A DNA stretch of 64,000 nucleotides, taken from assembly GCA_002840405.1 (NCBI GenBank), contig PHAR01000001.1, forward strand, positions 516,320 through 580,319, in the 5' to 3' direction. The notes beneath the pieces are model-generated. The model made no database searches. It had not been told where the DNA came from and saw only the letters and a program-made list of their open reading frames with translations. The DNA is from Deltaproteobacteria bacterium HGW-Deltaproteobacteria-8 (lineage in GTDB: Bacteria > Desulfobacterota > Desulfovibrionia > Desulfovibrionales > Desulfovibrionaceae). Position numbers and translations under genes: made by a program. Shown here one piece after another: positions 9,472 to 40,215 of the stretch; positions within the stretch are counted from its first letter, which is position 1; each line of letters begins with the position of its first letter.

Positions 9472-11675
9472 GCCGCCCCCTTCTTCTTCACGCTGAGGAA
9501 GGTTTCATGAATGGCCGAGTTGCCGCAGATGGAGTCGAAGCGGCTCTCCATGAGCTCCACGATGCTCGCCCCCACTCCCTTGGTGTGCGACAGCCCTCCG
9601 GAGATGCTGCCAAAGCCGCTGAGCATGTACACGGTGTCACGGCGAATCTTCGGCGTGACCAGGGCTTTCAACTCGCCCTTGCCCGCCGGGCTCTCCACCT
9701 GGACCACGTCGCCCTGGCGGACGCCCAGTTCCTTGGCCGCGTCCTCGTTCAGCCAGAGCATGTTCTCCGGCTCGAACTCGGACAACAGCGCGTTGTTGGT
9801 GCTGCTGCCCTGGGTGATGCAGGCGCTGCGGCCCACCACCAGCCGGAACTTTCGGGCCGCATCCGGGGTGGTCTTTGGCGGCTGGTACACCGGCAGGGGG
9901 TCCAGGCCCATTTCCGCGTAGCGCGAACAGTACAGCTCGATCTTCTGGCTCGGGGTCTTGAAGGGCGCCCCGTCCGTGCCGCCCAGGGGCGGATTGGGCG
10001 GGTAGAACACGCCGTCGCGCTTGATGATCTCCGCAGCCTCGGGGAAGGCGGCCAGCTGCTTCAGGCGGTAGGCCGGGATGTCGAAGTCGAAGAACTCGGC
10101 CAGGCCGAGCTTGCCGGCCAGGGCCTTCAGGATGTCGAACACCGGGCGGCTCTCGTACAGCGGGGGAATGACCGGGTCGCGCCAGACCAGGCACGCGCCC
10201 TCGGCGCCGGACTGCAGCGCCTGCACCGGGTCCTGGCGCTCCATGGCGCTTGGCGCAGGCAGCACCAGGTCGGCCATCCAGGCCGTGTCGCTCATGGCGA
10301 TGTCCACCACCACCATGAAGTCCAGCTGGTCGATCATCTCGCGGGTCTTGCGGCGCTCAGGCGCGGTGGCCATGGGGTTGGTCTTGTACACGAACCAGCC
10401 CTTGATCGGGTACGGCGCACCCTTGATGACCGCCTCGCGGGTGAGCACAAAGGAGCCCTCGTCGTCAAAGAGCAGGGGCACGCTCTTGGCGTCCACGCGG
10501 CCCGGGGGGCTGTCATCGTACCAGGGCGGCTCAAAGGCGACCTTCTTCAGGCCCGCCGGGCGCGCCGGAACAAGCCCGCCGGGCCGGTCGTAGTTGCCGA
10601 GCAGCGCGTTGACGATGGCGAAGCTGCGGCGGATCTGGGTGGAGTTTTCGTAGTCCGAGGTGCGCCGGCCAGGATAGACCATGGAGGCAGGGGCCGCAGC
10701 GGCCAGTTCCCGGGCCATGCGCCGGATGTCCGCAGCCGGGATGCCGGTCTGCTTCTCGGCCCATTCCGGTGTCATGTCGGCCACGTGCGCCGCGAGCTTG
10801 TCGAGACCGCTGGTGCGCTCGGCCATGTATTTGGCGTCGTAGAGCTTTTCGCTGATGATGACGTTGGCCAGCGCGAGCATGAAGGCCATGTCCGTGCCGG
10901 GCTGGATGGGGTACCATTCCGAAGCCAGGGCCGCGCTCTTGGTGTAGCGCGGGTCCAGCACCACCACCTTGGCCCCGTTCCCCATGATGGAGATGAGGTC
11001 CATGCTGTCGGGCGTGACCAGGGCCTCCAGGCGGTTGGCCCCGGCCAGGATGACGTACTTGGAGTTCTTCACGTCGGGCAGGGGCACATCGCCGAAGGTG
11101 TCCAGGAAGGCCCGGTTGCCGGAGAGCAGGCACAAGGACTCGTGGCTGGTGACGTTGAAGGAGCCGAAGGCCTCGGCAAAGCGGTTCACAAAGCCGCTCT
11201 GCATGTCCGCCCCGGCGCTGAAGAGCATGCCGCAGCGGGTGTACTTGGCGGCGATGTCCTTCATCTTGGTGGCAGTCAGCTCAATGGCCTCGTCCCAGGA
11301 GATGGCCTTCCACTTGCCCTCGCCGCGCTTGCCCACGCGCAGCAGGGGCGTCTTCACGCGGTCCGGGTCGTAGACCTGGGCCACGCCCGCGTTGCCGCGC
11401 GCGCAGAGCATGCCGCGCGACTTGGTGAACTTGGGGTTGGGATCAAGCTTGGTGATGACGCCGCGCTCCACCCGGGCGATGAGCCCGCAGCGGTTGAAGC
11501 ACATGTCACAGACGCTCAGCTTCGACTCCCACTTGGGCGCCTTGGCGGCTGGCGCGGCCTTGGCCTCGGGCGCGGTCACGGCGCCAACGGCCGTGGCCGC
11601 CACCGCCGTTGCCGAGGCCCCGGCCAGGCGCAGGAAGTCGCGCCGGGAAATTCGCTTGGTCTCGCTGTCACTCAT
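9468..11675 (-). CDS. Molybdopterin oxidoreductase catalytic subunit (thiosulfate/polysulfide reductase family)
   Basis: A 735-residue Mo-bisMGD enzyme of the PhsA/PsrA group. Residues 10-18 are a twin-arginine motif (SRRDFLRLA), so it is exported folded. Cys56, Cys59, Cys63 and Cys91 (C-x2-C-x3-C-x27-C) hold the proximal [4Fe-4S] cluster. The conserved SHESLC segment offers Cys182 as the probable Mo ligand, as in thiosulfate, polysulfide and sulfur reductases rather than the Sec/Cys of formate dehydrogenases. With the downstream ferredoxin, cytochrome b and rhodanese, the likely job is periplasmic reduction or disproportionation of thiosulfate, polysulfide or tetrathionate. The exact substrate, and direction, cannot be fixed from sequence. 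Confidence 0.9.
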   Translation of the reverse strand: MSDSETKRISRRDFLRLAGASATAVAATAVGAVTAPEAKAAPAAKAPKWESKLSVCDMCFNRCGLIARVERGVITKLDPNPKFTKSRGMLCARGNAGVAQVYDPDRVKTPLLRVGKRGEGKWKAISWDEAIELTATKMKDIAAKYTRCGMLFSAGADMQSGFVNRFAEAFGSFNVTSHESLCLLSGNRAFLDTFGDVPLPDVKNSKYVILAGANRLEALVTPDSMDLISIMGNGAKVVVLDPRYTKSAALASEWYPIQPGTDMAFMLALANVIISEKLYDAKYMAERTSGLDKLAAHVADMTPEWAEKQTGIPAADIRRMARELAAAAPASMVYPGRRTSDYENSTQIRRSFAIVNALLGNYDRPGGLVPARPAGLKKVAFEPPWYDDSPPGRVDAKSVPLLFDDEGSFVLTREAVIKGAPYPIKGWFVYKTNPMATAPERRKTREMIDQLDFMVVVDIAMSDTAWMADLVLPAPSAMERQDPVQALQSGAEGACLVWRDPVIPPLYESRPVFDILKALAGKLGLAEFFDFDIPAYRLKQLAAFPEAAEIIKRDGVFYPPNPPLGGTDGAPFKTPSQKIELYCSRYAEMGLDPLPVYQPPKTTPDAARKFRLVVGRSACITQGSSTNNALLSEFEPENMLWLNEDAAKELGVRQGDVVQVESPAGKGELKALVTPKIRRDTVYMLSGFGSISGGLSHTKGVGASIVELMESRFDSICGNSAIHETFLSVKKKGAA

Positions 11676-13841: not shown

Positions 13842-15743
13842 ATGGCCCTGCGTGCGCTCCGCTGGCTCCTTTTCGCGCTCCTGGCGACAGGCTTGCTGGC
13901 CGCGTCGGCCCTGGCCGCGCCCTCAAGCGGCGAGGAGCGCCACGCCCTGGTCATCGGCAACTCCGCCTACAAGTCCGCCCCGCTCAGGAACCCCGCCAAC
14001 GACGCCAGGGACATCGCCGCAGCGCTGAAGGACCTTGGCTTCAAGGTGACGCTGTTGACCGACGCCAGCCACCAGAAGATGGATGCGGCCGTGCGCGAGT
14101 TCGGCCTGAACCTGCGCCAGGGCGGGGTGGGCCTGTTCTACTACGCCGGGCACGGCGTGCAGGTGGCGGGTGAGAACTACCTCGTGCCCGTGGACGCCAA
14201 CATAGCCTCTGAAAGCGACGTGAAGTTCAGCTGCCTGAACGCCGGGCTGGTGCTGGGCAAGATGGAGGACGCCGGGAATTCGCTCAACGTGGTCATCCTC
14301 GACGCCTGCCGCAACAACCCCTTTGCCCGCAGCTTCCGCAGCGCGGAGCGCGGCCTGGCCAAAATGGACGCGCCCACGGGCTCCCTCATCGCCTACGCCA
14401 CAGCCCCGGGCTCCGTGGCGGGCGACGGCACGGGCAAAAATGGCGTGTACACCAAGCACCTGCTGCAGAACATGCGCGTGCCCGGCCTGCCCATCACGGA
14501 CCTGTTCATGCGCGTACGCATGGGCGTGGTGGCGGAAACAGGCAAAAAGCAGGTGCCCTGGGAGTCCAGCTCCCTGACCGGGTATTTCTACTTCAAGGGC
14601 GCAAGCGACCCTGGCCTGGCCCCGCCAGTCGGCCAGGCCCTGGCACCAGCGCCGGCTCCTGTCCCTGCTCCGGCCCTGGCACCTTTGGTGGATAAGCCGA
14701 AGACCGCCCCGGCCCCTGTGATCGACCTCAAGGCTGAGCGGCGGCGCATGGCCGAAGATGCTGCGCGGCTCAAGCGCGAAAAGCAGGAACTGGCGCAGCT
14801 CCAGTCCCTCCAGGCCGAGAGGGATCGCCTTGAGGACGAGCGCCAGAAGCTGGAGCAGGCCAAGCTGCTGGCCATGAGCACACGGCCCAAGCAGGCCCCT
14901 CAAGCGGCTCCGGCTGTCGCGCCCCAGGCCAATGCCCATGCCGCGCAGTTCGCGCAACTGGCCCGCGCTGGCCTGCCCGGCGCTTACGCGTATTTCGAGC
15001 AGGCCGTGCAGGCCCGGGCCAACGACTCTGATGCCCGCGCCGGGCTGGCCATCGCGTTGGTCTTCTCCGGACGCGAGGCCGACGCCAGATACCAGGTCCA
15101 ACGTTTGGATGAGTCCGGCGCACAAACATCGAGCGTGCGCCTCGCCAAGGGGCTGATGCTGGGGCTTTCCGGCAACGCGGACAGCCAGTACCAGCTGAGC
15201 CGCGCGCTGGAGGACGACGCGGACAAGGCTCTGGTGCTGCTGTGCCAGACGGCGGCCGCAGTCACGAAGTCCGAATACGACAAAGGCCAGCGGCTCATGG
15301 CCGACTATGCCACCCTGGTGCCTGAGCCAGAGCGCAGTGAATACGCCAGGAGCCTGGCGAAGCGTACCGACCCTCTCTCGGCCATGACCGGAACCTTCAC
15401 CTGGACGGCGGCCCAGGGCCAGTGGGGGCATGAGGCGAGCATGACGCTGGTCTTGGCTGCCGACAACGGCACCCTCTCAGGCTCCGGCACTATGATCCAC
15501 CAGGCCACCACCATGACCTCAGCCTTGAGCGAGGTGGAGGTCCGCGGCACCACCATGAGCTTCGTGTTCATGGCAAAGTACCTGCTCTTCATCGGCGAGC
15601 AGTACCGGTTCACCTGTGCCCTGACCAAGGATCCCGGCATCATCGCCGTGGTCAAGGCCGAGGTGCTGCGCATGGGCTCCTACACGGAGATGACGCGTTG
15701 GTCGAACAGCAGGCTTGTGCGCCAGTCCACCCCGCGGCCCTGA
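13842..15743 (+). CDS. Exported caspase-like (peptidase C14) protein with coiled coil and helical-repeat tail
   Basis: A 633-residue protein with a signal peptide (first ~26 residues). It carries a caspase/metacaspase p20-type domain (about 30-255). The catalytic dyad is visible as His104 in YYAGHG and Cys156 in DACRNNP. A Pro/Ala linker, a charged Glu/Arg/Lys-rich coiled coil (about 290-345), TPR-like helices (about 365-510) and a ~110-residue beta-rich end follow. Proteases of this type cleave after basic residues or act as scaffolds. It is secreted across the inner membrane and its next-door gene is a close paralogue. It lies upstream of the T6SS locus, but a link is only positional. Confidence 0.85.
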   Translation: MALRALRWLLFALLATGLLAASALAAPSSGEERHALVIGNSAYKSAPLRNPANDARDIAAALKDLGFKVTLLTDASHQKMDAAVREFGLNLRQGGVGLFYYAGHGVQVAGENYLVPVDANIASESDVKFSCLNAGLVLGKMEDAGNSLNVVILDACRNNPFARSFRSAERGLAKMDAPTGSLIAYATAPGSVAGDGTGKNGVYTKHLLQNMRVPGLPITDLFMRVRMGVVAETGKKQVPWESSSLTGYFYFKGASDPGLAPPVGQALAPAPAPVPAPALAPLVDKPKTAPAPVIDLKAERRRMAEDAARLKREKQELAQLQSLQAERDRLEDERQKLEQAKLLAMSTRPKQAPQAAPAVAPQANAHAAQFAQLARAGLPGAYAYFEQAVQARANDSDARAGLAIALVFSGREADARYQVQRLDESGAQTSSVRLAKGLMLGLSGNADSQYQLSRALEDDADKALVLLCQTAAAVTKSEYDKGQRLMADYATLVPEPERSEYARSLAKRTDPLSAMTGTFTWTAAQGQWGHEASMTLVLAADNGTLSGSGTMIHQATTMTSALSEVEVRGTTMSFVFMAKYLLFIGEQYRFTCALTKDPGIIAVVKAEVLRMGSYTEMTRWSNSRLVRQSTPRP

Positions 15744-15761
15744 GCCAACACCGCAATGGGC

Positions 15762-15789
15762 TTGCATTTTTCATGGAGTGGGATAAATT
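15762..15789 (+). promoter_or_regulatory. Putative promoter of the second caspase-like gene
   Basis: TTGCAT (15762-15767), 16 bases, TAAATT (15784-15789). It begins 18 bases after the stop of the first paralogue and mirrors that gene's own promoter, so the duplication seems to have included the promoter. Confidence 0.5.
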
Positions 15790-15820
15790 AGTGCGTAACA
15801 CTCCACGGAGGGGCCCCCCC

Positions 15821-18049
15821 ATGCGCCGCGCCACAGCACGATTCGCCCTGGCTCTGCCCCTGCTTCTGCTTTGGTGCTTCGCCTTGTGTGCTCCGGCCCT
15901 CGCCGCGCCCTCGGGCAGCGAGGAACGCTACGCCCTGGTCATCGGCAACTCCGCCTACAAATCCGCTCCGCTGAAAAATCCCGCCAAGGACGCGCGCGAC
16001 ATGGCCGCCCTGCTGGGGTCCCTCGGCTTCAAGGTCACCCTCAAGGTCAACGCCGGCCAGAAAGACATGGAAGAGGCCGTGCGCGAGTTCGGCCTGAACC
16101 TGCGCAAGGGCGGGGTGGGCCTGTTCTACTTCGCCGGGCACGGCGTGCAGGTGGCGGGCAACAACTACCTCGAGCCTGTTGACGCCAAGATCCAGAGCGA
16201 GAGCGACGTGCGCTACGAATGCGTGGACGCCGGGCGCGTGCTCGGCAAGATGGAGGACGCGGGCAACACGCTGAACATCGTCATCCTCGACGCCTGCCGC
16301 AACAACCCCTTCAGCCGGGGCTTCCGTAGCGCGGACCGTGGCCTGGCCGAGATGCGCGCGCCCACGGGCTCCCTCATCGCCTATGCCACGGCCCCGGGCT
16401 CCGTGGCCAGCGACGGCACCGGCGAGAACGGCGTGTACACCAAGCATCTGCTGAAGAACATGCGCACCTCCGGCCTGCCCATCACCGACGTGTTCATGCG
16501 CGTGCGCATGGGCGTGGTGGGTGAAACCGCCAAGAAGCAGGTGCCCTGGGAGTCCAGCTCCCTCACCGGCTACTTCTATCTTACTGGTGACGACAAGGCC
16601 GTCCAGACCCTGGCTCCGGCTTCTGTCCCTGCTCCGGTTCCTGTCCCTGCTCCGGCCCTGGCCCCTGAGGTGGAAAAGCCGAAGCCCGCCCCGGCGATCG
16701 ACATCAAGGCCGAACGACGGCGCATGGCCGAGGAGGCCGCGCGGCTCAAGCACGAGAAGGAGGAGCTGGCGCAGCTCCAGGCCCTCAAGACCGAAAAAGA
16801 CCGCATTGAGGCCGAGCGCCAGAGGATCAGCGAGGCCAAGCTCCTGGCCATGGGCTCCAGGCCCAAGCAGGCGCCGCCCGCCCAGGCATCCCAGGCCAGC
16901 AGGCCCGCCAGCAGATCCGACGTGGCCGCCAACGCGCCCTACTTCGCCATGCTCGCGCGCCACGGCGTCAGCGATGCCCAGCACTATTTCGAGTCCGCCC
17001 TGCAGGCCCGGCCCGACGACGCCGACGCCCGCGCCGGGCTGGCCGTGGCCCTGCTGCTGCACAAGCGCGAGGCCGACGCCAAGTACCAGGTCCGGCGCGT
17101 CGAGGAATCCGGACAGACCACCCCCGGCACCCGCGTGGCGCGCGGCTTCATGCTCGGCATGGAGGGCCAGCTCTCCGACAGCTCCTACCAGCTCAACCGC
17201 GCGCTGGAGGAAGGCGCGGACCGCGCCCTGGTGCAGCTGGCCATTGCCACGGCAGCGACCAAGAAAAACGACATGGACCAGGCCAAGAGGGCCATGGAGG
17301 AATACCGCTCGCTTGTGCCGCCAATGGAGGAGAACGACTACGCCAAGGACCTGGCGAGCAAGGTCGACATCGTGGGCCGGCTGGTGGGCACCTTCTACTG
17401 GACCATGCTCAGCAAGGAGATCAACTCCATGTCGAGCACCGTCACCTTCTCGCGGCTGGGCGAGGGCCTCGCGGCCAGCTCGGGCGGGTATGCGGGCGGC
17501 ACCATCAGCAACCTGAAGATCTCCGGCAAGCATTTGAGCCTGACCTGGACAGCAACCGTCTTCCTCATCACCAGCACCTTCGAGGTCACCGCCGACCTTG
17601 CAGGCGACCTGGACACCATCCCGGTCACCTACCACGAGGCCGGATCGCCCGCGATGCTGCGCGGCTTCTTCATCCGCCAGGGCAGCATGGCCCAGAACAT
17701 GGCCTACCACGCCAACCCGGCGGACTGCTTCATCGCCACCGCAGCCTATGGCGGGGCCTTCGAGGACCAGGTGACCACCCTGCGCCGCTTCCGCGACGAC
17801 GTGCTCCTGGACTTCCAGTGGGGCCGCGACTTCGTGGCCACCTACTACCGCTTGAGCCCGCCCCTGGCCGACGCCATCCGCCAGCGCCCCTGGGCGCGGG
17901 CTGCGGTGCGCGGCGCGCTCCTGCCGGTGGTGCTTATGGCCGGGGCAGCCACGGGCGACGTTGAAAGCGCGGCCTGGCTGGGCCTGTGCGCGGGCCTCAT
18001 GGCCGCGGGCGTGCTCGTGCTGCGGGTCCGCCGCTCCCGACAGGGCTAG
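15821..18049 (+). CDS. Exported caspase-like protein with C-terminal CFI-box and membrane segments
   Basis: A 742-residue tandem paralogue of the preceding protein. It has a signal peptide (ALPLLLLWCFALCAPALAA), a caspase domain with His107 (YFAGHG... here FAGHG) and Cys159 (DACRNNP), the same coiled-coil segment and TPR-like helices. Unlike its twin it ends with a CFIATAAYGG motif (Cys636) followed by a segment rich in Arg/Asp and then two hydrophobic stretches. This is the CFI-box C-terminal domain, seen at the ends of exported bacterial proteins. The ATG is set by GGAGG about 9 bases upstream and by the signal peptide; an in-frame upstream extension to 15698 overlaps the previous gene and is rejected. 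Confidence 0.87.
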   Translation: MRRATARFALALPLLLLWCFALCAPALAAPSGSEERYALVIGNSAYKSAPLKNPAKDARDMAALLGSLGFKVTLKVNAGQKDMEEAVREFGLNLRKGGVGLFYFAGHGVQVAGNNYLEPVDAKIQSESDVRYECVDAGRVLGKMEDAGNTLNIVILDACRNNPFSRGFRSADRGLAEMRAPTGSLIAYATAPGSVASDGTGENGVYTKHLLKNMRTSGLPITDVFMRVRMGVVGETAKKQVPWESSSLTGYFYLTGDDKAVQTLAPASVPAPVPVPAPALAPEVEKPKPAPAIDIKAERRRMAEEAARLKHEKEELAQLQALKTEKDRIEAERQRISEAKLLAMGSRPKQAPPAQASQASRPASRSDVAANAPYFAMLARHGVSDAQHYFESALQARPDDADARAGLAVALLLHKREADAKYQVRRVEESGQTTPGTRVARGFMLGMEGQLSDSSYQLNRALEEGADRALVQLAIATAATKKNDMDQAKRAMEEYRSLVPPMEENDYAKDLASKVDIVGRLVGTFYWTMLSKEINSMSSTVTFSRLGEGLAASSGGYAGGTISNLKISGKHLSLTWTATVFLITSTFEVTADLAGDLDTIPVTYHEAGSPAMLRGFFIRQGSMAQNMAYHANPADCFIATAAYGGAFEDQVTTLRRFRDDVLLDFQWGRDFVATYYRLSPPLADAIRQRPWARAAVRGALLPVVLMAGAATGDVESAAWLGLCAGLMAAGVLVLRVRRSRQG

Positions 18050-20124: not shown

Positions 20125-20607
20125 ATGGCGAAAGAAGGATCGGTAGCTCCCAAGGAGCGGGTGAACATCGTCTACAGACCGGAAACTGGTGACGCCAAGG
20201 AAGAAGTCGAGCTGCCCCTGAAGCTCCTGGTGATGGGAGACTTCTCCCAGAAGACCGACGACCGCATGGTCGAAGACCGCGACCCCGTCAATATCGACAA
20301 GGATAATTTCAACGCCGTGCTCAAGGCCCAGAACCTGGAGCTCAACCTCGGCGTGGACAACAAGCTCAGCAAGGAACCCGGCGCGCAGATGGCCGTGAAG
20401 CTCAAGTTCGAGAGCCTGAAGGATTTCGATCCGGATGAGATCCTCAAGCAGGTCCCCGAACTCCAGAAGCTCATGGAGCTCAGAGAGGCCCTCAAGGCCC
20501 TGAAGAGCCCGCTGTCCAACGTGCCGGATTTCCGCAAGAAGGTGCAGGACCTCGTCAAGGACGCGGGCGCACGCGAACGGCTTCTGAAAGAACTTGGAAT
20601 CGAGTAG
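20125..20607 (+). CDS. tssB: T6SS contractile sheath small subunit TssB (VipA)
   Basis: A 160-residue protein of normal TssB length. It contains the family segments VNIVYRPETGDAKEEVELPLKLLVMGDFS and the later FESLKDFDPDEILKQVPEL (cut here into two descriptions for clarity: the N-terminal strand region and the DFxPD segment). It forms the small half of the contractile sheath with TssC, whose gene starts 10 bases later. GGAGG precedes the ATG. Confidence 0.96.
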   Translation: MAKEGSVAPKERVNIVYRPETGDAKEEVELPLKLLVMGDFSQKTDDRMVEDRDPVNIDKDNFNAVLKAQNLELNLGVDNKLSKEPGAQMAVKLKFESLKDFDPDEILKQVPELQKLMELREALKALKSPLSNVPDFRKKVQDLVKDAGARERLLKELGIE

Positions 20608-20617
20608 GGGGACATCC

Positions 20618-22102
20618 ATGGCTGAAGAAAAACTCCAACAGCAGCAAGAGGCCGCCGGAGCGACGACCACCGGCTCCCTGCTGGACGACATTGTCGAGGC
20701 GACCAAACTCAAGCCGAGTGATGAGGCCTATTCCGTGACCAAGGCGGGGCTGCAGGCCTTCCTTGAGGAGATGGTCAAGCCCGAACGCGAAGGCGCCAAG
20801 GTTTCCGGCAACCTGGTCGACGACATGCTGGCCCAGATCGACCAGAAGCTTTCCCTCCAGATGGACACCATCATCCACAACAAGGACTTCCAGCAGATGG
20901 AGTCCTCGTGGCGCTCGCTCAAGTTCCTGGTGGACAGGACCGATTTCCGCGAGAACGTCCGCATCCAGATGATGAACGTCTCCAAGCAGAACCTGCTTGA
21001 CGACTTCGACGACGCGCCGGAGATCACCAAGTCCGGCCTGTACAAGCAGGCCTACACGGCCGAGTACGGGCAGTTCGGCGGCCAGCCTTTCGGCGCCATC
21101 ATCGCCAACTACGACTTCGGCCCCGGCCCCCAGGACATGAAGCTGCTGCAATATTGCGCGTCCGTGTCGTCCATGGCGCATGCGCCCTTCATCGCCGCCG
21201 CCGGAACCGAGTTCTTCGGCATCGAGAAATGGAGCGAGCTGCCCAACCTGAAGGACCTCAAGTCCATCTTCGAGATGCCGCAGTACGCCAAGTGGCAGTC
21301 CTTCCGCGAGTCCGAGGATTCGCGCAACGTCGGCCTGACCCTGCCGAAGTTCCTGCTGCGGCTGCCCTACGGACAGGACACCCTGCCCGCCAAGAGCTTC
21401 AACTATCAGGAAACCGTGGCCGACGGCGACGACGACTTCTGCTGGGGCAACACGGCCTTCGCCTTTGCCTCCAAGCTCACCGACTCCTTTGCCAAGTACC
21501 GCTGGTGCGCCAACATCATCGGCCCCCAGGGCGGCGGCGCGGTGGAGAACCTGCCGCTGTACCAGTACCAGGCCATGGGCGTGGTGCAGAACAAGATCCC
21601 CACCCAGGTGCTGCTCTCGGAGCGCCGGGAATACGAGCTGGCCGAGGAAGGCTTCATCGGCCTGACCATGCGCAAGGGCAGCGACAACGCGGCCTTCTTC
21701 TCCGCAAACTCCTGCCAGAAGGCGAAGAACTTCGGCACCAGCAAGGAAGGCAAGGAGGCCGAGCTCAACTACAAGCTCTCCACCCAGCTGCCCTACATGA
21801 TGATCATGGACCGCCTGGCCCACTACATCAAGGTCATCCAGCGCGAGAACATCGGCACCTGGAAGGAGCGCGGCGACCTGGAGCGCGAGCTCAACACCTG
21901 GATCTCCCAGTACGTGACGGAGATGGATGACCCGGCGCCCAGCGTCCGCAGCCGCAGGCCGCTGCGCATGGCCCAGATCGAGGTCAGCGACGTGGAAGGC
22001 GATCCGGGCTGGTATCAGGTCTCTCTCAAGGCGCGTCCGCACTTCAAGTACATGGGCGCCTCCTTCACGCTGTCTTTGGTGGGCAAGCTGGACAAGGAAT
22101 AG
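20618..22102 (+). CDS. tssC: T6SS contractile sheath large subunit TssC (VipB)
   Basis: A 494-residue sheath subunit. Family hallmarks are the early LDDIVEATKLKPSD, FQQMESSWRSLKFLVDRT, the FFGIEKWSELPNL segment, a CWGNTAFAFA stretch and the C-terminal domain ending in SFTLSLVGKL. With TssB it builds the sheath whose contraction fires the Hcp tube and is later recycled by ClpV. The ATG after AGGGGG is preferred to an in-frame upstream start inside tssB. Confidence 0.96.
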   Translation: MAEEKLQQQQEAAGATTTGSLLDDIVEATKLKPSDEAYSVTKAGLQAFLEEMVKPEREGAKVSGNLVDDMLAQIDQKLSLQMDTIIHNKDFQQMESSWRSLKFLVDRTDFRENVRIQMMNVSKQNLLDDFDDAPEITKSGLYKQAYTAEYGQFGGQPFGAIIANYDFGPGPQDMKLLQYCASVSSMAHAPFIAAAGTEFFGIEKWSELPNLKDLKSIFEMPQYAKWQSFRESEDSRNVGLTLPKFLLRLPYGQDTLPAKSFNYQETVADGDDDFCWGNTAFAFASKLTDSFAKYRWCANIIGPQGGGAVENLPLYQYQAMGVVQNKIPTQVLLSERREYELAEEGFIGLTMRKGSDNAAFFSANSCQKAKNFGTSKEGKEAELNYKLSTQLPYMMIMDRLAHYIKVIQRENIGTWKERGDLERELNTWISQYVTEMDDPAPSVRSRRPLRMAQIEVSDVEGDPGWYQVSLKARPHFKYMGASFTLSLVGKLDKE

Positions 22103-25961: not shown

Positions 25962-28610
25962 ATGATCAACGTTGACATGAAGAGCCTGCTTTCCAAGCTC
26001 AACACTTACAGCACCAACGCCCTGCACAACGCGGCCGGACTCTGCGTCTCGCGCACGCACTATGAAGTCACCGTGGAGCATTTCTTCCTCAAGTGCCTGG
26101 AGGACGTGAACAGCGACCTGCCGCTGATCCTGCGCCAGTACGGCGTGGAGTCGGCCCGGTTCACGGCGGCCCTGTCCGACGTGCTGGAGGACTTCAAGTC
26201 CGGCAACTCCGGCAAGCCCGTGTTCTCGCCCATGTTCATCGAGCTTGTGGAGGACGCCTGGCTCATCGCCTCGGTGGAGCTCGGCGACACCCGCATCCGC
26301 TCCGGCGCGGTGCTGCTGGCCTTCCTGGCCAAGCCGAACTTCTACGCCTCCGGGGCGTACGCCAGCCTGTTGTCCGAGGTCAGCCGCGACTCCCTGCTCA
26401 AGGACTTCTGGTCCATCGCCAAGACCTCGGTGGAGCACAAGCTCCCGGCCGCCGAACCCGGCGGCTCGGCCTCGTCGGCTCCTGGCGCGGCCAAGGGCGC
26501 GGGCGGGTTCATCGAGCGCTTCTGCGTGGACTTCACGGCCAAGGCCAGGGACGGCGGCATCGACCCCGTGTTCGGCCGCGACGCCGAGATGCGACAGATG
26601 GTGGACATCCTGGCCCGCCGCCGCAAGAACAACCCCATCCTGGTGGGCGAACCCGGCGTGGGCAAAACCGCCGCCATCGAGGGCCTGGCCCTGCGCATCA
26701 TCGAGGGCGACGTGCCTGAAGTCTTAAGCGGCGTGACCCTGCTCGGCCTGGACATGGGCCTGCTGGAGGCCGGCGCAGGCATGAAGGGCGAGTTCGAGAA
26801 CCGCCTCAAGGGCGTCATCGACGAGATCAAGTCCAGCGAAAAGCCCATCATCCTGTTCATCGACGAGGCCCACACCCTGGTCGGCGCGGGCGGCTCGGCA
26901 GGCGGCTCGGACGCGGCCAACCTGCTCAAGCCCGCCCTGGCGCGCGGCGAGCTCAAGACCTGCGCGGCCACCACCTGGACCGAGTACAAGAAGTATTTCG
27001 AGAAGGACCCGGCCCTGGCCCGGCGCTTCCAGCTGGTCAAGCTGGACCCGCCGTCGGTGGATACCACCACCATCATCCTGCGCGGCCTGCGCGACAGCTA
27101 CGAGAAGTCGCACAACGTCATCATCCGCGACGACGCGGCAGTGGCCGCCGCCGTCTATTCCGACCGCTACATCGCGGGCCGCTTCCTGCCGGACAAGGCC
27201 ATCGACCTCTTGGACACCACCTGCGCCCGGGTCAAGGTCAACCTGTCGTCCAAGCCCGCCGTGCTGGAGGACTGCGAACGCACGGCCCAGGCCCTGGAGC
27301 GCGAGAAAAAGGCCCTGGAGCGCGACCGGCTGAACGGCGTGGCCATAGACGAGGCCCGGTACAAGGAGGTCGTGGAGACCATCGCCGCCAAGACCGCTGA
27401 GGCGGACAGCATCCGCGAGCACTGGCTCAAGGAGAAGGGCGCCGCCCACGCGGTGCTCGACGCCCGCAAGCTGGTCCTGGAGGCCAGCACCGCCGAAAAC
27501 GCGGACGAGGGTGCGGTCGGCAAGCTCAAGGGCGAGCTCGACGCGCGGGACAAGGAGCTGGCCGCCCTCCAGGGCGACGAGCCCATGGTGCAGATCGAGG
27601 TGACCCCGGACCTTGTCGGGCGCGTGGTCTCCGACTGGACCGGCATCCCGGTGGGCAAGATGGCGCGCGACGAGGCCAAGACCGTGGTCGACCTGGACGT
27701 GCGGCTCCAGGACCGGGTCAAGGGCCAGAACCAGGGGCTGGCCGCCATCGCCGAGGTCATCCGCGCCTCCAAGGCGGGCATCAAGAATCCGGACCAGCCC
27801 ATCGGCGTGTTCCTGCTGGTCGGACCCTCGGGCGTGGGCAAGACCGAGACCGGCCTGTCCCTGGCCGACCTGCTGTTCGGCAACGAGAGCTCGGTGGTCA
27901 CCATCAACATGAGCGAATTTCAGGAGAAGCACACGGTCTCGCGGCTCATCGGCTCGCCTCCGGGCTATGTCGGCTACGGCGAGGGCGGCATGCTGACCGA
28001 GGCGGTGCGCCGCCAGCCGTACAGCGTGGTCCTGCTCGACGAGGTGGAGAAGGCGCACCTGGACGTCATGAACACCTTCTACCAGGTGTTCGACAAGGGC
28101 ATACTCACCGACGGCGAGGGCAAGGACATCAATTTCAAGAACACCATCATCATCCTGACCTCCAACCTCGGCACCGACGTCATCCAGGAGATGACCGGGG
28201 CCGGCGGCGAGATGCCGCTTGAGGCCGTGGTCTCGGCGATCCGGCCCATCCTCTCCCAGCACTTCAAGCCCGCGCTTCTGGCGCGCATGAGCGTGGTGCC
28301 CTTTGTCAGCCTCGACCCCGGGGCCATGAAGCTCATCGTCCGGCTGAAGCTTGGCAAGCTCAAGAAGATGCTTTTGAACAACAACAAGATGCTGCTCTCC
28401 TTTGACGAGGCCGTGGTGGACCAGATCGCGGCCCGCTGCACCGAGGTGGAGACCGGGGCGCGCAACATCGAGTACATCCTGAACGGGAACGTGCTGCCCC
28501 AGATGTCAAAGGAGATCCTGGGCCACATGACCCAGGGCGGCATGCCGTCGGCCGTGCACTTAAGCGTTGCCGAAGACGGCTCCTTTGCCATGAAGTTTTC
28601 CCAGAACTAG
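25962..28610 (+). CDS. clpV: T6SS AAA+ ATPase TssH (ClpV)
   Basis: An 882-residue double-AAA+ unfoldase. It has the ClpV N-domain (about 1-160), first AAA with Walker A GEPGVGKT and Walker B ILFIDEAHTL, a ClpB-like middle region (about 410-520), and second AAA with GPSGVGKTETG and VVLLDEVEKAH. It disassembles contracted TssBC sheath for reuse. It follows tssG by 60 bases and has its own ribosome site. Confidence 0.96.
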   Translation: MINVDMKSLLSKLNTYSTNALHNAAGLCVSRTHYEVTVEHFFLKCLEDVNSDLPLILRQYGVESARFTAALSDVLEDFKSGNSGKPVFSPMFIELVEDAWLIASVELGDTRIRSGAVLLAFLAKPNFYASGAYASLLSEVSRDSLLKDFWSIAKTSVEHKLPAAEPGGSASSAPGAAKGAGGFIERFCVDFTAKARDGGIDPVFGRDAEMRQMVDILARRRKNNPILVGEPGVGKTAAIEGLALRIIEGDVPEVLSGVTLLGLDMGLLEAGAGMKGEFENRLKGVIDEIKSSEKPIILFIDEAHTLVGAGGSAGGSDAANLLKPALARGELKTCAATTWTEYKKYFEKDPALARRFQLVKLDPPSVDTTTIILRGLRDSYEKSHNVIIRDDAAVAAAVYSDRYIAGRFLPDKAIDLLDTTCARVKVNLSSKPAVLEDCERTAQALEREKKALERDRLNGVAIDEARYKEVVETIAAKTAEADSIREHWLKEKGAAHAVLDARKLVLEASTAENADEGAVGKLKGELDARDKELAALQGDEPMVQIEVTPDLVGRVVSDWTGIPVGKMARDEAKTVVDLDVRLQDRVKGQNQGLAAIAEVIRASKAGIKNPDQPIGVFLLVGPSGVGKTETGLSLADLLFGNESSVVTINMSEFQEKHTVSRLIGSPPGYVGYGEGGMLTEAVRRQPYSVVLLDEVEKAHLDVMNTFYQVFDKGILTDGEGKDINFKNTIIILTSNLGTDVIQEMTGAGGEMPLEAVVSAIRPILSQHFKPALLARMSVVPFVSLDPGAMKLIVRLKLGKLKKMLLNNNKMLLSFDEAVVDQIAARCTEVETGARNIEYILNGNVLPQMSKEILGHMTQGGMPSAVHLSVAEDGSFAMKFSQN

Positions 28611-37064: not shown

Positions 37065-37838
37065 ATGGCCAAGTGCGTTTTTATAAGCATCCTGGAAAAG
37101 GACGAGACCAAGGGCCGGGGGCTCTTCCAGGCCGTGACCCGCTACGGGCTCGCGGTGAACGGCCATTTCTGGTCCGACAACCTGGAGAAGATGGAGTGGG
37201 CCGGCCCCATCAATGAGCTGAGCAAACCCGAGGTCGGCGTCTGGCTGATCAAGGGCGGCAAGGCCAGCTTCGAGAACCCGGCCATCCGCTTCGGGCTGGG
37301 GCTGCTCGCGGCCGCAGTCCAGGCGCGGCGCGGCCACGGGTTCCCCATCCTGTGCATCTGCGACGATGGCAGCCTGGACGTGGACACGCTGCCCACGACC
37401 CTCAGGAGCGCGGAGGTGGTGGACGAGGCCAAGCTGGGCGTCAAGCTGGCGGCCAGGGCCAACATGCCCATCCCGAAGATCGCGCCGGAGTACCGCTTCG
37501 ACCTGTACCCCCTGCCCAGCCTCGGCCTGTGGGTGGAGACCGGCCCGGCGCCAGGCCATGCCTGGAAGGGCGCGCTGCTCGGCGTGTCCGGCGGGAGCAT
37601 CGAGGCCCACGGCGTTGGCCCGGCCGGGATGCTGCCCGACAAGTGCGTGCTGAACTACCCCATGCAGGGGCTCAAGCTGGAGCTGGGCGGCAAGGACTAT
37701 GTGGGCTGGGCCGTGCAGAACGCGCTCGGCGAGAACGACTCGTACTACGTGAAGGTCGCCGGGACCCCGGACAGCCTGCTGCTCGGCGAACTGCCCGAGG
37801 GCGACGACGCGGAGCTCTTCTCCCTGACCCTGAAATAG
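37065..37838 (+). CDS. Unrecognised protein downstream of the PAAR-like gene
   Basis: A 257-residue soluble protein; I do not recognise its family. It has no signal peptide or membrane helix. The first half looks alpha/beta (MAKCVFISILEKDETKGRG, RFGLGLLAAAVQARRGHGFPILCICDDG as a strand-helix-strand block); the second half is beta-rich (LGLWVETGP, LKLELGGKDYVGW, DSYYVKVAG). It sits 43 bases after the PAAR-like gene, the usual place for a T6SS effector or its partner. It could be an effector cargo, a chaperone or an effector-loading protein. No immunity gene follows in the same direction: the next gene is on the other strand, which argues against an antibacterial toxin with a standard immunity partner. 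Confidence 0.6.
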   Translation: MAKCVFISILEKDETKGRGLFQAVTRYGLAVNGHFWSDNLEKMEWAGPINELSKPEVGVWLIKGGKASFENPAIRFGLGLLAAAVQARRGHGFPILCICDDGSLDVDTLPTTLRSAEVVDEAKLGVKLAARANMPIPKIAPEYRFDLYPLPSLGLWVETGPAPGHAWKGALLGVSGGSIEAHGVGPAGMLPDKCVLNYPMQGLKLELGGKDYVGWAVQNALGENDSYYVKVAGTPDSLLLGELPEGDDAELFSLTLK

Positions 37839-37852
37839 GACATCACGCCCTC

Positions 37853-39415
37853 CTACCAGCTGAAGCCGAAGCTGAACCGTTGCCCGCTGGAGAGGATCTC
37901 CGGGGCCAGGGTCAGGCTGATGTCCAGCGGGGTTCCGCCGTCATGCTCCCCGTGCGCCGCCACCGAGAGGTCGTGCGGCGCGGGCAGGCCCAGCGACTGG
38001 ATGTACAGGGCGATGGCCTGCGCGAGGTCGGTCTCGAGGTCCTTGATCTCGCCACGCCGGGTGGCGGACATCCGGATGAGGAAGCCGGTCAGCAGGGACA
38101 AAAACAGCCGGAACTTCAACGGCCCGCCGTCCATGGTGACCGCGCCCGCGGCAAAGACCTGGTCCCGGCCCGGCGTTGCGGCCAGGGGCAGAATGCCCGC
38201 CCGCTTGAAGTCCGCCAACCGCTCCAGACCCAGCGGAACCTCCAGCGGCGAGGGCCTGGGGCCGTCCGTAAGCGGCATCTGCTCCAGGCTGACGCTGCCG
38301 CGCTCGTCCAGGCGGGTGGGCCGGCCATGCACGGCCACGCTTTTGGCGCACAGCGCGCTAAGTCCCCAGGCCGCGCTGGCCCAGAGCGGCTCCGCCTCGC
38401 TGAAGCCCTGTCCCGCAAAGCCGGGCTCCGGCCGGTGCAGGGGCCGGGCCAGCACGCCGCCGACGCAGGGCGCGAGCCAGCCCGCACCGGGCCGGGCGGC
38501 CAGGGTCTTCCAGCGGGCGTACTCCGGGCCTTCCAACTGGCCCGGGATGTAGCGCACCGAGCCAAGCTCGCCCCAGTCAGCTATCCCCAGGAAATTCGAC
38601 CCAATAGGCACCACAAGCGGGGCAAGCAGGGCCTCGGCGAAGTCCATGGCCCGCTCCAGCACGGCCATGTCGCGGGGGGTGTTGGCCAGGGGCAGGTCCA
38701 GCAGCGCCATATCCGGCGGGCTGCCCGCCAGGGCGGTTTCGAGCTGGTCAAAGACCGGGAGGCTGTCGCCCTGCGGCAGGGGGACAAGGGTCAGGCGCAC
38801 GGAGGTCGTCGCGCCCGAGGGGACCTGCCGGGCCAGCAGCTCGGCGCCGCGCCAGGCGGCCTCCAGGCGCCGGAAATTACGGTCCGCGAAGATGGCCTGC
38901 AAAAGACGGCTGTGGATGGCATCGAGCTGCTGCACAAGGCCGCCAGCGGCCCTCGGCGCTATAGGATCCCCTCCCCCACCGCCACCGGTGTCGACCAGGG
39001 ACAAGAGGTCATCCAGGGCGCTGGCCTTGGCCGATGCGCCAGAGGCGATCTGGGAGGCAGCCTGCGGGGCCGGGATGCTGATGATCCGGGCCACGCGAGG
39101 GCAGACCATCGCCAGCCCGGCAGGGGCTCCCCCGGCCGCGAGGTGGTCCTTGGCCGCCTGGAGCTCCTGGAGATACGGCGCGCCCGAGGCCAGGTTGCCC
39201 GGCCTGAACCCGGCCATGCTTTTCACGGTCACCGCCATTGAGCCGTCAGGGCAGAGCCCCTTGTCCACGGGAATGTCCAGGGTCGGCGAAAGCTCGGCCA
39301 GGGCGGAGTCCAGGGACTGGGAATCAACGCTGAGCACGGGGGGGGCGGCCAGGTCCAGGGCCGGGGAAAACGGCGCCAGGGCCAGGATGGTGAAGACGGG
39401 GGGAGTGATGCGCAT
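37853..39415 (-). CDS. Divergent TssB-TssC sheath fusion paralogue
   Basis: A 520-residue protein on the opposite strand inside the T6SS locus. Its first ~110 residues follow TssB in order (FTILALAPFS for the LLVMGDFS strand; VDSQSLDSALAELSPTLDIPV; MAVTVKSMAGFRP for the FxxLxDFxP element). The rest follows TssC: a linker, FRRLEAAWRGAELL (for FQQMESSWRSLKFL), LGIADWGELGSV (for FFGIEKWSELPNL), ARWKTLAARP, WGLSALCAKS, and a C-terminal strand RFSFGFSW. Thus one polypeptide carries both sheath subunits in shortened, diverged form. The start is fixed by AGGAGG 5 bases before the ATG. It may cap, nucleate or regulate the sheath, or be specific to the baseplate. Assignment is my own alignment by eye. 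Confidence 0.72.
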   Translation of the reverse strand: MRITPPVFTILALAPFSPALDLAAPPVLSVDSQSLDSALAELSPTLDIPVDKGLCPDGSMAVTVKSMAGFRPGNLASGAPYLQELQAAKDHLAAGGAPAGLAMVCPRVARIISIPAPQAASQIASGASAKASALDDLLSLVDTGGGGGGDPIAPRAAGGLVQQLDAIHSRLLQAIFADRNFRRLEAAWRGAELLARQVPSGATTSVRLTLVPLPQGDSLPVFDQLETALAGSPPDMALLDLPLANTPRDMAVLERAMDFAEALLAPLVVPIGSNFLGIADWGELGSVRYIPGQLEGPEYARWKTLAARPGAGWLAPCVGGVLARPLHRPEPGFAGQGFSEAEPLWASAAWGLSALCAKSVAVHGRPTRLDERGSVSLEQMPLTDGPRPSPLEVPLGLERLADFKRAGILPLAATPGRDQVFAAGAVTMDGGPLKFRLFLSLLTGFLIRMSATRRGEIKDLETDLAQAIALYIQSLGLPAPHDLSVAAHGEHDGGTPLDISLTLAPEILSSGQRFSFGFSW

Positions 39416-39541
39416 GCGGCCTCCTCGGACAGGAACATTTTCGGGCCAGGAGCGTTCTCGGGGCGTTGGACAGATCATAGCGGAAAACAGTTCGGATTGG
39501 AAACAGAGTCCTGGCAAGGGTTGCGGCGCTGTCGTGATGCA

Positions 39542-39570
39542 TCGACATTGATTGATTTTTTGTGTAGAAA
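39542..39570 (+). promoter_or_regulatory. Putative promoter of the tssJKLM operon
   Basis: TCGACA (39542-39547), a 17-base spacer and TAGAAA (39565-39570), in an AT-rich patch of the 218-base region between the divergent sheath-like gene and tssJ. It would start transcription about 60 bases before the tssJ GTG and make the membrane-complex genes a separate unit. Confidence 0.5.
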
Positions 39571-39623
39571 TTTCCAGGTCGGTAATGCTGCCGGTTTCAG
39601 GTGTGGGAATATCTACGCACAGA

Positions 39624-39631
39624 GGGGGGGG
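39624..39631 (+). repeat. Run of eight Gs in the tssJ ribosome-binding region
   Basis: A homopolymer of eight Gs lies within AGAGGGGGGGGCG, 2 bases before the likely GTG start of tssJ, so it forms the Shine-Dalgarno region. Slippage here would alter spacing to the start codon. Confidence 0.6.
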
Positions 39632-39633
39632 CG

Positions 39634-40215
39634 GTGTACGGCAAGTTATTGATTCCGCTTCTGTTTGCCTCTGCACTTCTGGCCGCAGGTTGTGGCGGCG
39701 GGCAACAGAAACCGCAGAATCCAACGACCGTCACGTCCCCTGCGCTGAGCCCGGCGGACATCAAGTGGACCTATCAGATCAACGCCATCAGCCTCAAACT
39801 TGGCGTGGACAAGAACCTGAACGAGTACCAAGGCGCGCCGCATGCCCTGCTGCTCTGCGTCTACCAGCTGTCCAGCCAGAACAAGTTCAAGGAGACGGCA
39901 GGCACATCCACCGGGCTGAACGCCTTGTACGACTGCAAGAGTTTCGACGCCTCGGTGACCCATGTGCAGCGGGTGTTTGTCCAGCCAGGCCAGAACGCCA
40001 CCCTGTCCATGGACAGGGCTGAGGGGACCAAGTTCATGGCCGTGGCCGCAGGGTACTATGATCTGCAGGGGACCGGAGCCACCAGGACCTGGCAGATCCC
40101 GATGGAGACATCTGAGAAAGGCATGCTTTTTTGGAAGGATACGCTATATGCCCCAGCAAAACTGGACGCGATGCTGATCCTTGGTCCGCACGAGTTACAG
40201 AAGGTAGGAGAGTGA
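39634..40215 (+). CDS. tssJ: T6SS outer-membrane lipoprotein TssJ
   Basis: A 193-residue TssJ/VasD-type lipoprotein. The signal segment LLIPLLFASALLAAGC gives a lipobox cysteine at about residue 20. The mature beta-sandwich has ALLLCVYQLSSQNKF (the family LYQL-x-n-F element), VFVQPGQNATLSMDRAEG and the final AMLILGPHEL. TssJ anchors TssM to the outer membrane. The GTG at 39634 is preferred over GTG 39601 because the G-rich ribosome site lies just before it and the signal peptide then has normal length. Confidence 0.88.
   Translation: MYGKLLIPLLFASALLAAGCGGGQQKPQNPTTVTSPALSPADIKWTYQINAISLKLGVDKNLNEYQGAPHALLLCVYQLSSQNKFKETAGTSTGLNALYDCKSFDASVTHVQRVFVQPGQNATLSMDRAEGTKFMAVAAGYYDLQGTGATRTWQIPMETSEKGMLFWKDTLYAPAKLDAMLILGPHELQKVGE

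What the first reader, a model, noticed from the sequence alone, without database searches (positions are those of the whole stretch)
37853..39415. A single protein that looks like a fused, diverged TssB-TssC sheath subunit
On the reverse strand inside a complete T6SS locus, one 520-residue protein follows TssB over its first ~110 residues and TssC over the rest, in the same motif order as the normal tssB and tssC 16 kb upstream. Normal TssB and TssC are separate and assemble 1:1. A fused and shortened copy could be a terminal-ring, baseplate or decoy version that starts, caps or limits the sheath. Its opposite orientation and its place between the accessory genes and tssJ suggest separate control.
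Basis: partly seen in the sequence, partly recalled or inferred. Interest (0 to 1): 0.75.

Follow-up and report, generated by a model that had tools for sequence, protein, structure and literature searches.

The report
Conserved one-armed fused TssB-TssC protein
A bacterial harpoon (type VI secretion system) carries, besides its two ordinary sheath proteins, a third one in which both are fused into one chain that lacks one of the two linking arms, and this fast-changing extra part is found scattered across a whole phylum, which suggests a special piece that starts, caps or brakes the sheath.

Summary
ORF 37853-39415 (-), 520 aa, is a TssB-TssC fusion: Pfam VipA and VipB both pass cut-off; profiles put residues 5-97 on TssB 29-128 and 155-481 on TssC 73-450; its AlphaFold2 model matches VipB (Z 28.8). 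It is no artefact: 19 of 288 family genomes and 15 of 345 phylum genomes hold it, dN/dS is 0.12-0.45, and its distances track those of the genome's own TssC (Mantel r 0.82).

It supplements the normal sheath (TssC found in 32 of 34 genomes). The TssB N-arm (donor strand of the sheath handshake) is missing in 38 of 38 proteins read; the C-terminal strand and a LLDEII-like, ClpV-type motif are kept. It differs between genomes about three times as much as TssC. In the phylum sample it follows an FHA gene in 11 of 12 loci, but in none of 26 other loci.

Best reading: a low-copy, ClpV-addressable, one-armed sheath subunit acting at a sheath end as cap or brake. Identity is strong; position and function are inferred. 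The paper searches made showed no description of it.

The parts
37853..39415 (-). Fused TssB-TssC protein, 520 aa
   Evidence: 38 proteins of the family read
39125..39403 (-). TssB-like part, residues 5-97 (TssB 29-128); the TssB N-arm (1-28) is absent
   Evidence: hhalign; 6-9 residues before the core strand in 38 of 38, 29-36 in 21 of 21 TssB proteins
38951..39064 (-). Disordered linker, residues 118-155
   Evidence: pLDDT under 50 in the AlphaFold2 model
38993..39016 (-). LLDEII-like, ClpV-type motif in the linker, residues 134-141
   Evidence: 38 of 38 fit a loose pattern, 25 of 38 a strict one; compare LLDDIVEAT in the local TssC and the LLDEII text of PMC4239648 (passages)
37973..38953 (-). 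TssC-like part, residues 155-481 (TssC 73-450)
   Evidence: hhalign; model matches VipB Z 28.8, 337 aligned, 2.7 A
37856..37972 (-). C-terminal strands (two acceptor-like strands and a last strand 513-519), residues 482-520
   Evidence: DSSP of the model; W within the last 5 residues in 38 of 38; roles inferred
39539..39566 (-). Conserved element between the divergent fused gene and tssJ, role unknown
   Evidence: alignment of 9 loci; only exact match in the window
20125..20607 (+). canonical tssB
   Evidence: Pfam 194 bits, NCBIfam equivalog
20594..22102 (+). canonical tssC
   Evidence: Pfam 426 bits, NCBIfam equivalog 698 bits
22740..23159 (+). tssE (gp25-like)
   Evidence: Pfam GPW_gp25
25962..28610 (+). 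clpV (tssH)
   Evidence: AAA domains and ClpB_D2-small, in T6SS order
37065..37838 (+). Neighbour gene unk257, 257 aa, convergent with the fused gene
   Evidence: no Pfam, NCBIfam or PHROG match; within 1 kb in 15 of 17 own-family loci
39601..40215 (+). tssJ, divergent from the fused gene
   Evidence: Pfam T6SS-SciN

Best explanation
The gene encodes an accessory, single-chain paralogue of the TssB-TssC sheath protomer. Shown by sequence and model: it has the sheath fold, keeps TssC-like C-terminal strands and a basic residue at the site needed for sheath assembly (VipB K223), and keeps a ClpV-type motif in its linker, but it has lost the TssB N-terminal arm. That arm is the donor strand that ties a protomer to its neighbour and has been proposed to pass contraction from ring to ring. 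Inferred: the protein is made in small amounts, docks on the sheath by its remaining C-terminal strand, and occupies a sheath end, more likely the distal one, as a cap or brake, because protomers without the N-arm link cannot carry growth or contraction onwards normally. ClpV can then strip it off through the LLDEII-like motif. In some lineages it is probably co-expressed with an FHA protein beside PP2C and kinase genes, that is, tied to phospho-control of T6SS assembly; in the window it lies on its own strand, divergent from tssJKLM.
For: Fold and domain identity. N-arm: 6-9 residues before the core strand in 38 of 38 against 29-36 in 21 of 21 TssB; in several members an in-frame stop close upstream rules out a longer arm (L016, L017, L018 and others). 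ClpV-type motif in 38 of 38 by a loose pattern; 25 of 27 fetched TssC partners show LL-[DES]-[DE]-I. Residue at the VipB K223 position is K or R in 38 of 38; at the D333 position it is not acidic in 15 of 38, the window included. In V. cholerae K223A blocks assembly; D333A and N-arm insertions allow assembly, block contraction and are dominant negative (PMC5797969, passages). Each subunit hooks by two strands to the ring nearer the baseplate (PMC5813253, passages). An addition to TssC: 19 of 19 family genomes, 13 of 15 others. Mean p-distance 0.638 against 0.218 for TssC over 27 genomes, Mantel r 0.82, 0 of 2000 permutations as high; dN/dS 0.12-0.45 in 10 pairs. FHA gene upstream and co-directional in 11 of 12 phylum-sample loci, clpV directly upstream in the twelfth.
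Against: No expression, interaction or imaging data. The acceptor-like strands look present, so a further ring might still be added, which a true cap should prevent. The D333 position is acidic in 23 of 38 members and the next residue in 32 of 38, so loss of that contact is not general. T6SS clusters of like gene order without the gene exist (L157-L160), so it is not needed for the machine as such. FHA linkage is not general: 7 of the 12 phylum-sample loci come from one family (f13), and no FHA match is found in 17 own-family loci nor in 9 further loci (L034, L036, L037, L040-L044, L089; some short); the window's genome has no FHA match at all. Two genomes with the gene gave no TssC at E 1e-40: G654 (86% complete) and G519, which is 99% complete although its contig starts at tssE; in G220 only a 39% TssC remains beside a split copy. 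The ClpV motif is pattern evidence, and the loose pattern was written after seeing the linkers. Two of the 27 TssC partners lack the LLDEII-like form. I chose the start codons.
Confidence: 0.4

Rival explanations
1. Soluble regulator: the protein never enters the sheath but binds an FHA protein, ClpV, or free TssB/TssC and so gates assembly or recycling (a decoy or adaptor).
For: FHA gene directly upstream and co-directional in 11 of 12 phylum-sample loci, with PP2C-like and kinase-like genes in the stretch in the same 11 (Pfam checks); clpV directly upstream in L117; fast divergence; the LLDEII-like motif could titrate ClpV. FHA proteins activate assembly and bind TagF elsewhere (PMC5995506, passages).
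Against: Conservation of the whole sheath fold including C-terminal strands and the K223 site is more than a decoy would need. No FHA match in 26 other loci or in the window's genome. Odds lowered from 0.25 to 0.22 on recount for this reason.
Confidence: 0.22
2. Baseplate-side starter ring: it sits between TssE and the first TssBC ring, hooks to TssE by its C-terminal strand and receives the arms of the first normal ring.
For: C-terminal strand and acceptor-like strands present, N-arm lost; TssE is proposed to accept first-ring linkers (PMC5813253, passages); neighbour of tssJKLM in the window's clade.
Against: TssE is present and relatives do without the gene (L158-L160). By the published contraction model a ring without N-arms next to the baseplate would hinder firing (inference).
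Confidence: 0.17
3. Alternative bulk sheath: it co-polymerises along the sheath or builds a second, one-chain sheath.
For: One-chain sheath proteins of phages and extracellular injection systems match its fold.
Against: N-arm missing in 38 of 38; weaker sequence constraint than TssC (mean p-distance 0.638 against 0.218); TssC found in 32 of 34 genomes that hold it.
Confidence: 0.08
4. Decaying relic of a tssB-tssC fusion without function.
For: Fast divergence; broken copy in G220.
Against: dN/dS 0.12-0.45 in 10 pairs, presence in several families of the phylum, co-inheritance with TssC. In G220 no close TssC is left either.
Confidence: 0.03

Closest known systems
TssB/TssC (VipA/VipB) sheath heterodimer
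   Same: Both folds in the same order; basic residue at the VipB K223 site; LLDEII-like motif; C-terminal strand
   Different: One chain; no TssB N-arm; the TssB end (129-160) and the first 72 TssC residues replaced by a linker; an addition to the normal pair; fast diverging; below both NCBIfam equivalog cut-offs
Second TssC homologue TssC40 of Agrobacterium tumefaciens (PMC3702570, passages)
   Same: An extra TssC-family protein beside the sheath TssC, not redundant with it
   Different: In the passages read it is a TssC homologue, with no word of a TssB part; not compared by sequence here
One-chain sheath proteins of contractile phages, pyocins and extracellular injection systems
   Same: Fold match whose range runs from residue 1-7 to 506-510 in the top rows (8kee Z 23.9, 306 aligned; 9gts 21.9; 6rao 21.6; 3j9q 20.3)
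   Different: Sequence is T6SS-like (VipB 71 bits); the only PHROG match is a family of unknown function at E 0.011
TssE/gp25
   Same: No donor N-arm, and could accept arms (inference)
   Different: TssE is only a small gp25-like protein (139 aa here); the fused protein has the whole sheath fold and a C-terminal strand

Membership tests
TssB/VipA family (PF05591, TIGR03358) | Pfam domain match over cut-off | tested here: met
   28.2 bits against 24; partial, profile 50-122 of 155
TssB/VipA family (PF05591, TIGR03358) | NCBIfam equivalog score | tested here: not met
   22.8 bits against 97.25
TssB/VipA family (PF05591, TIGR03358) | N-terminal donor arm | tested here: not met
   TssB 1-28 unaligned; 6-9 residues before the core strand in 38 of 38 against 29-36 in 21 TssB
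TssC/VipB family (PF05943, TIGR03355) | Pfam domain match over cut-off | tested here: met
   71 bits against 27
TssC/VipB family (PF05943, TIGR03355) | NCBIfam equivalog score | tested here: not met
   49.5 bits against 271.5
TssC/VipB family (PF05943, TIGR03355) | VipB fold | tested here: met
   AlphaFold2 pLDDT 83.8, pTM 0.84; Z 28.8 to 5ojq_A over 337 residues
Functional sheath protomer | C-terminal strand after the acceptor strands | tested here: met
   strand 513-519 in the model, W within the last 5 residues in 38 of 38; donation to a neighbour not tested
Functional sheath protomer | Assembles into a contractile sheath | not testable with these tools
   needs imaging or cryo-EM
ClpV substrate of the VipB type | LLDEII-like helix motif | tested here: inconclusive
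   window protein has ALDDLLSLV; 38 of 38 by a loose pattern written after inspection, 25 of 38 by a strict one
ClpV substrate of the VipB type | Binding to the ClpV N domain | not testable with these tools
   needs a binding assay
One-chain phage/eCIS sheath | Sequence family match | tested here: inconclusive
   no sheath PHROG at E up to 1; fold matches
TssC40-type second TssC | Sequence relationship | not tested
   only text passages read

The most novel reading that the evidence does not exclude
A natural contraction insulator: a one-armed, single-chain sheath protomer that joins the T6SS sheath but cannot pass on the N-arm pull, so that it caps growth or stops the contraction wave until ClpV removes it, under FHA phospho-control in some lineages. 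It would be a dedicated end or brake subunit of the T6SS sheath and a natural counterpart of the laboratory VipA-linker and VipB-D333A mutants.
Probability: 0.3. Interest if true: 0.82.

Novelty: new variant of a known kind. Interest (0 to 1): 0.62.

Why it matters
How a T6SS sheath stops growing, what sits on its distal end (composition called unclear in PMC5813253, abstract and passages) and how contraction spreads are open questions. A conserved protomer that has lost one of the two linking arms and kept the rest gives a natural probe for both. It also shows that TssB and TssC have been joined into one chain in nature and kept, as a supplement, in several families of a phylum.

Tried and rejected
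Unrelated family: rejected; the best sequence and fold matches are T6SS sheath proteins. Sequencing or frame artefact: rejected by conservation and selection (4 of the 10 pairs have dS above 1, from 1.03 to 2.5, and are less reliable). Phage origin: no sheath PHROG match; a viral-contig scan with six exact peptide patterns confirmed none, a weak scan. Replacement of TssC: not supported. Constant link to DUF2169 clusters: not borne out. A scan of genome contigs with the single protein found nothing; the scan with the 18-row alignment gave 13 loci, of which L045 and L046 are ordinary separate tssB plus tssC. Plasmids: the window protein hits 140 records, none covering 80% of the query; a distant member hits 433, 2 of them covering 80%. 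Of those two I opened one (H23), and besides it H22 (75% covered); both have separate tssB and tssC; the other records were not opened. Presence outside the phylum is not excluded.

Counting rules: the 38 proteins are 18, L034, L036, L037, L040, L042, L043, L044, L089 and one from each of L116-L127. Left out: L035, L038 and L039 (contigs of the same length as those of G219, G192 and G172, so the same proteins), L041 (runs off its contig), G220 (split), G438 and G646 (cut by contig ends).

Neighbour unk257: only a receiver/TIR-like N-terminal domain at middling Z (12.2 best).

Full report
What is there. The minus-strand ORF 37853-39415 encodes 520 aa with a strong ribosome-binding site. It matches T6SS_VipA (TssB) and VipB (TssC) in Pfam, each above the curated cut-off, and falls far below the NCBIfam equivalog cut-offs of both. 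In the PDB its sequence relatives are TssC chains and, weakly, TssB chains; a 26-row profile finds both clearly (VipB chains at 1e-32, HsiB1 at 8.5e-8). hhalign maps 5-97 to TssB 29-128 and 155-481 to TssC 73-450.

Structure. AlphaFold2 on a 12-row alignment gives pLDDT 83.8, pTM 0.84, with residues 118-155 below pLDDT 50. VIA-align puts T6SS TssC chains first (5ojq_A Z 28.8, 337 aligned, 2.7 A) and then one-chain sheath proteins of a cyanophage, the Streptomyces and AFP injection systems and pyocin (Z 20-24), whose aligned range begins at residue 1-7 and ends at 506-510, i.e. touches both halves (a range gives only the first and last aligned residue). Foldseek gives the same families. The protein reads as a TssB-TssC heterodimer written as one chain.

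What is missing and kept. In the handshake two TssC strands are joined by a TssC C-terminal strand of one neighbour and the TssB N-terminal strand of another (PMC5807055, passages), and each subunit hooks by two strands to the ring nearer the baseplate, where TssE is proposed to take the arms of the first ring (PMC5813253, passages). The fused protein has 6-9 residues before the TssB core strand in 38 of 38 members; 21 of 21 TssB proteins have 29-36. The N-arm is therefore gone. A last strand ending in W is kept in 38 of 38. The site of VipB K223 is K or R in 38 of 38; the site of D333 is E or D in 23 and T, S, L, N or R in 15, the window among them (L397), although the next residue is E or D in 32. 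I mapped these two sites by the gapless alignment of the local TssC to 5mxn and their spacing of 110. In V. cholerae K223A prevents assembly, while D333A and N-arm insertions permit assembly, block contraction and act dominantly (PMC5797969, passages). The linker carries a motif like the LLDEII motif of the VipB helix that binds ClpV (PMC4239648, passages; see also PMC5048182, passages): 38 of 38 by a loose pattern written after I had seen the linkers, 25 of 38 by a strict one. The local TssC has LLDDIVEAT; of 27 TssC partners 25 show such a form and 2 (G526, G666) do not.

Distribution. Family: 19 of 288 genomes at E 1e-20, one of them (G220) with a split copy. Order sample with an 18-row profile: intact members score 3.8e-113 or better, the split copy 6.7e-50, and ordinary TssC 1.6e-34 down to the 1e-25 limit of the search, a clear gap. 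Phylum sample: 15 of 345 genomes at E 1e-40, the window's own included, 9 of 224 genera. Named contigs with members are labelled Desulfovibrionaceae, Syntrophus, Desulfotignum, Desulfocapsa and unplaced proteobacterial or deltaproteobacterial bins. The contig lengths of G172, G192 and G219 equal those of L039, L038 and L035, so the window's family is probably Desulfovibrionaceae (inference). All 19 family genomes also hold a TssC, though G220 has only a 39% one; 13 of 15 others hold TssC, the misses being G654 (86% complete) and G519 (99% complete, contig starting at tssE).

Evolution. Over 27 genomes the distances of the fused protein and of the same genome's TssC correlate (Mantel r 0.82, 0 of 2000 permutations as high), with mean p-distance 0.638 against 0.218: co-inherited but under much looser constraint than the bulk sheath. 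NG86 dN/dS is 0.12-0.45 in 10 pairs, 4 of which have dS above 1.

Neighbourhood. In 17 own-family loci with 20 kb read (L072-L088), unk257 lies within 1 kb in 15 and DUF2169/pentapeptide genes lie in the stretch in 15; in the window's clade the fused gene is convergent with unk257 and divergent from tssJKLM. The window's order fits the DUF2169 synteny type C of PMC11883445 (passages). Clusters of like order without the fused gene, with unk257 before tssJ, occur in two genomes of the window's genus (L158, L160), in L159 and on a Caballeronia plasmid (L157). So the gene is an optional insert at that place. Of the 14 other phylum-sample hits, 12 loci were fetched (L116-L127); an FHA gene lies upstream in the same direction in 11, with gaps of about 100 bases or less, or overlap, in 10 and about 470 bases in L120, and PP2C-like and kinase-like genes lie in the same stretches; in L117 clpV ends 5 bases upstream (FHA confirmed by Pfam in L118-L124 and L126). 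These 12 come from five families, 7 from one. No FHA match was found in the 17 own-family loci or in 9 further loci. FHA proteins with PpkA and PppA control T6SS assembly in other bacteria (PMC5995506, passages). The window's genome has no FHA match.

Control region. Between the divergent fused gene and tssJ, the 9 loci aligned (of 10 of this layout with both flanks read; L079 not included) share a block TACAC...TGTCGA, with the only exact match to it in the window at 39539-39566. A sigma-70-like match lies at 39503-39474 on the gene's strand. Roles are unknown.

Reading. Shown: identity, conservation, missing arm, kept strands and motif, addition to TssC, linkage. Inferred: entry into the sheath, end position, ClpV removal, FHA control. 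I favour an end subunit (cap or brake), more likely distal, because a ring without N-arms beside the baseplate would hinder firing under the published model; the evidence does not decide it.

Literature. I searched for natural fusions, special TssB/TssC paralogues and FHA-linked sheath proteins (listings, plus the passages named above) and saw no description of a TssB-TssC fusion of this kind; the library lacks most subscription papers.

Noticed in passing
window 13842-15743 and 15698-18049: Two tandem genes with caspase-like (Peptidase_C14) and TPR domains just upstream of tssA.
   Followed up: no
window 37065-37838: unk257: no known family; 52 of 288 family genomes, wider than the fused gene; model has a receiver/TIR-like N-terminal domain (Z up to 12.2) and a beta-rich C-terminal part; sits between clpV and tssJ in L158-L160; a 37% relative on a Caballeronia plasmid.
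   Followed up: partly
window 39539-39566: Element conserved in the 9 aligned fused-gene/tssJ intergenic regions, unknown role.
   Followed up: partly
L155 3375-3379: On a Yersinia enterocolitica plasmid tssB and tssC are adjacent in the same frame, separated by the tssB stop and one codon, which shows how simply such a fusion could arise.
   Followed up: no
L034: Contig labelled Desulfocapsa whose fused protein is 87% identical to that of G021 in the window's family; possibly misbinned or transferred.
   Followed up: no
L090 (G220) 9596-10084: Split fused gene next to tssK, tssL and a piece of tssM; this genome has only a 39% TssC elsewhere.
   Followed up: partly
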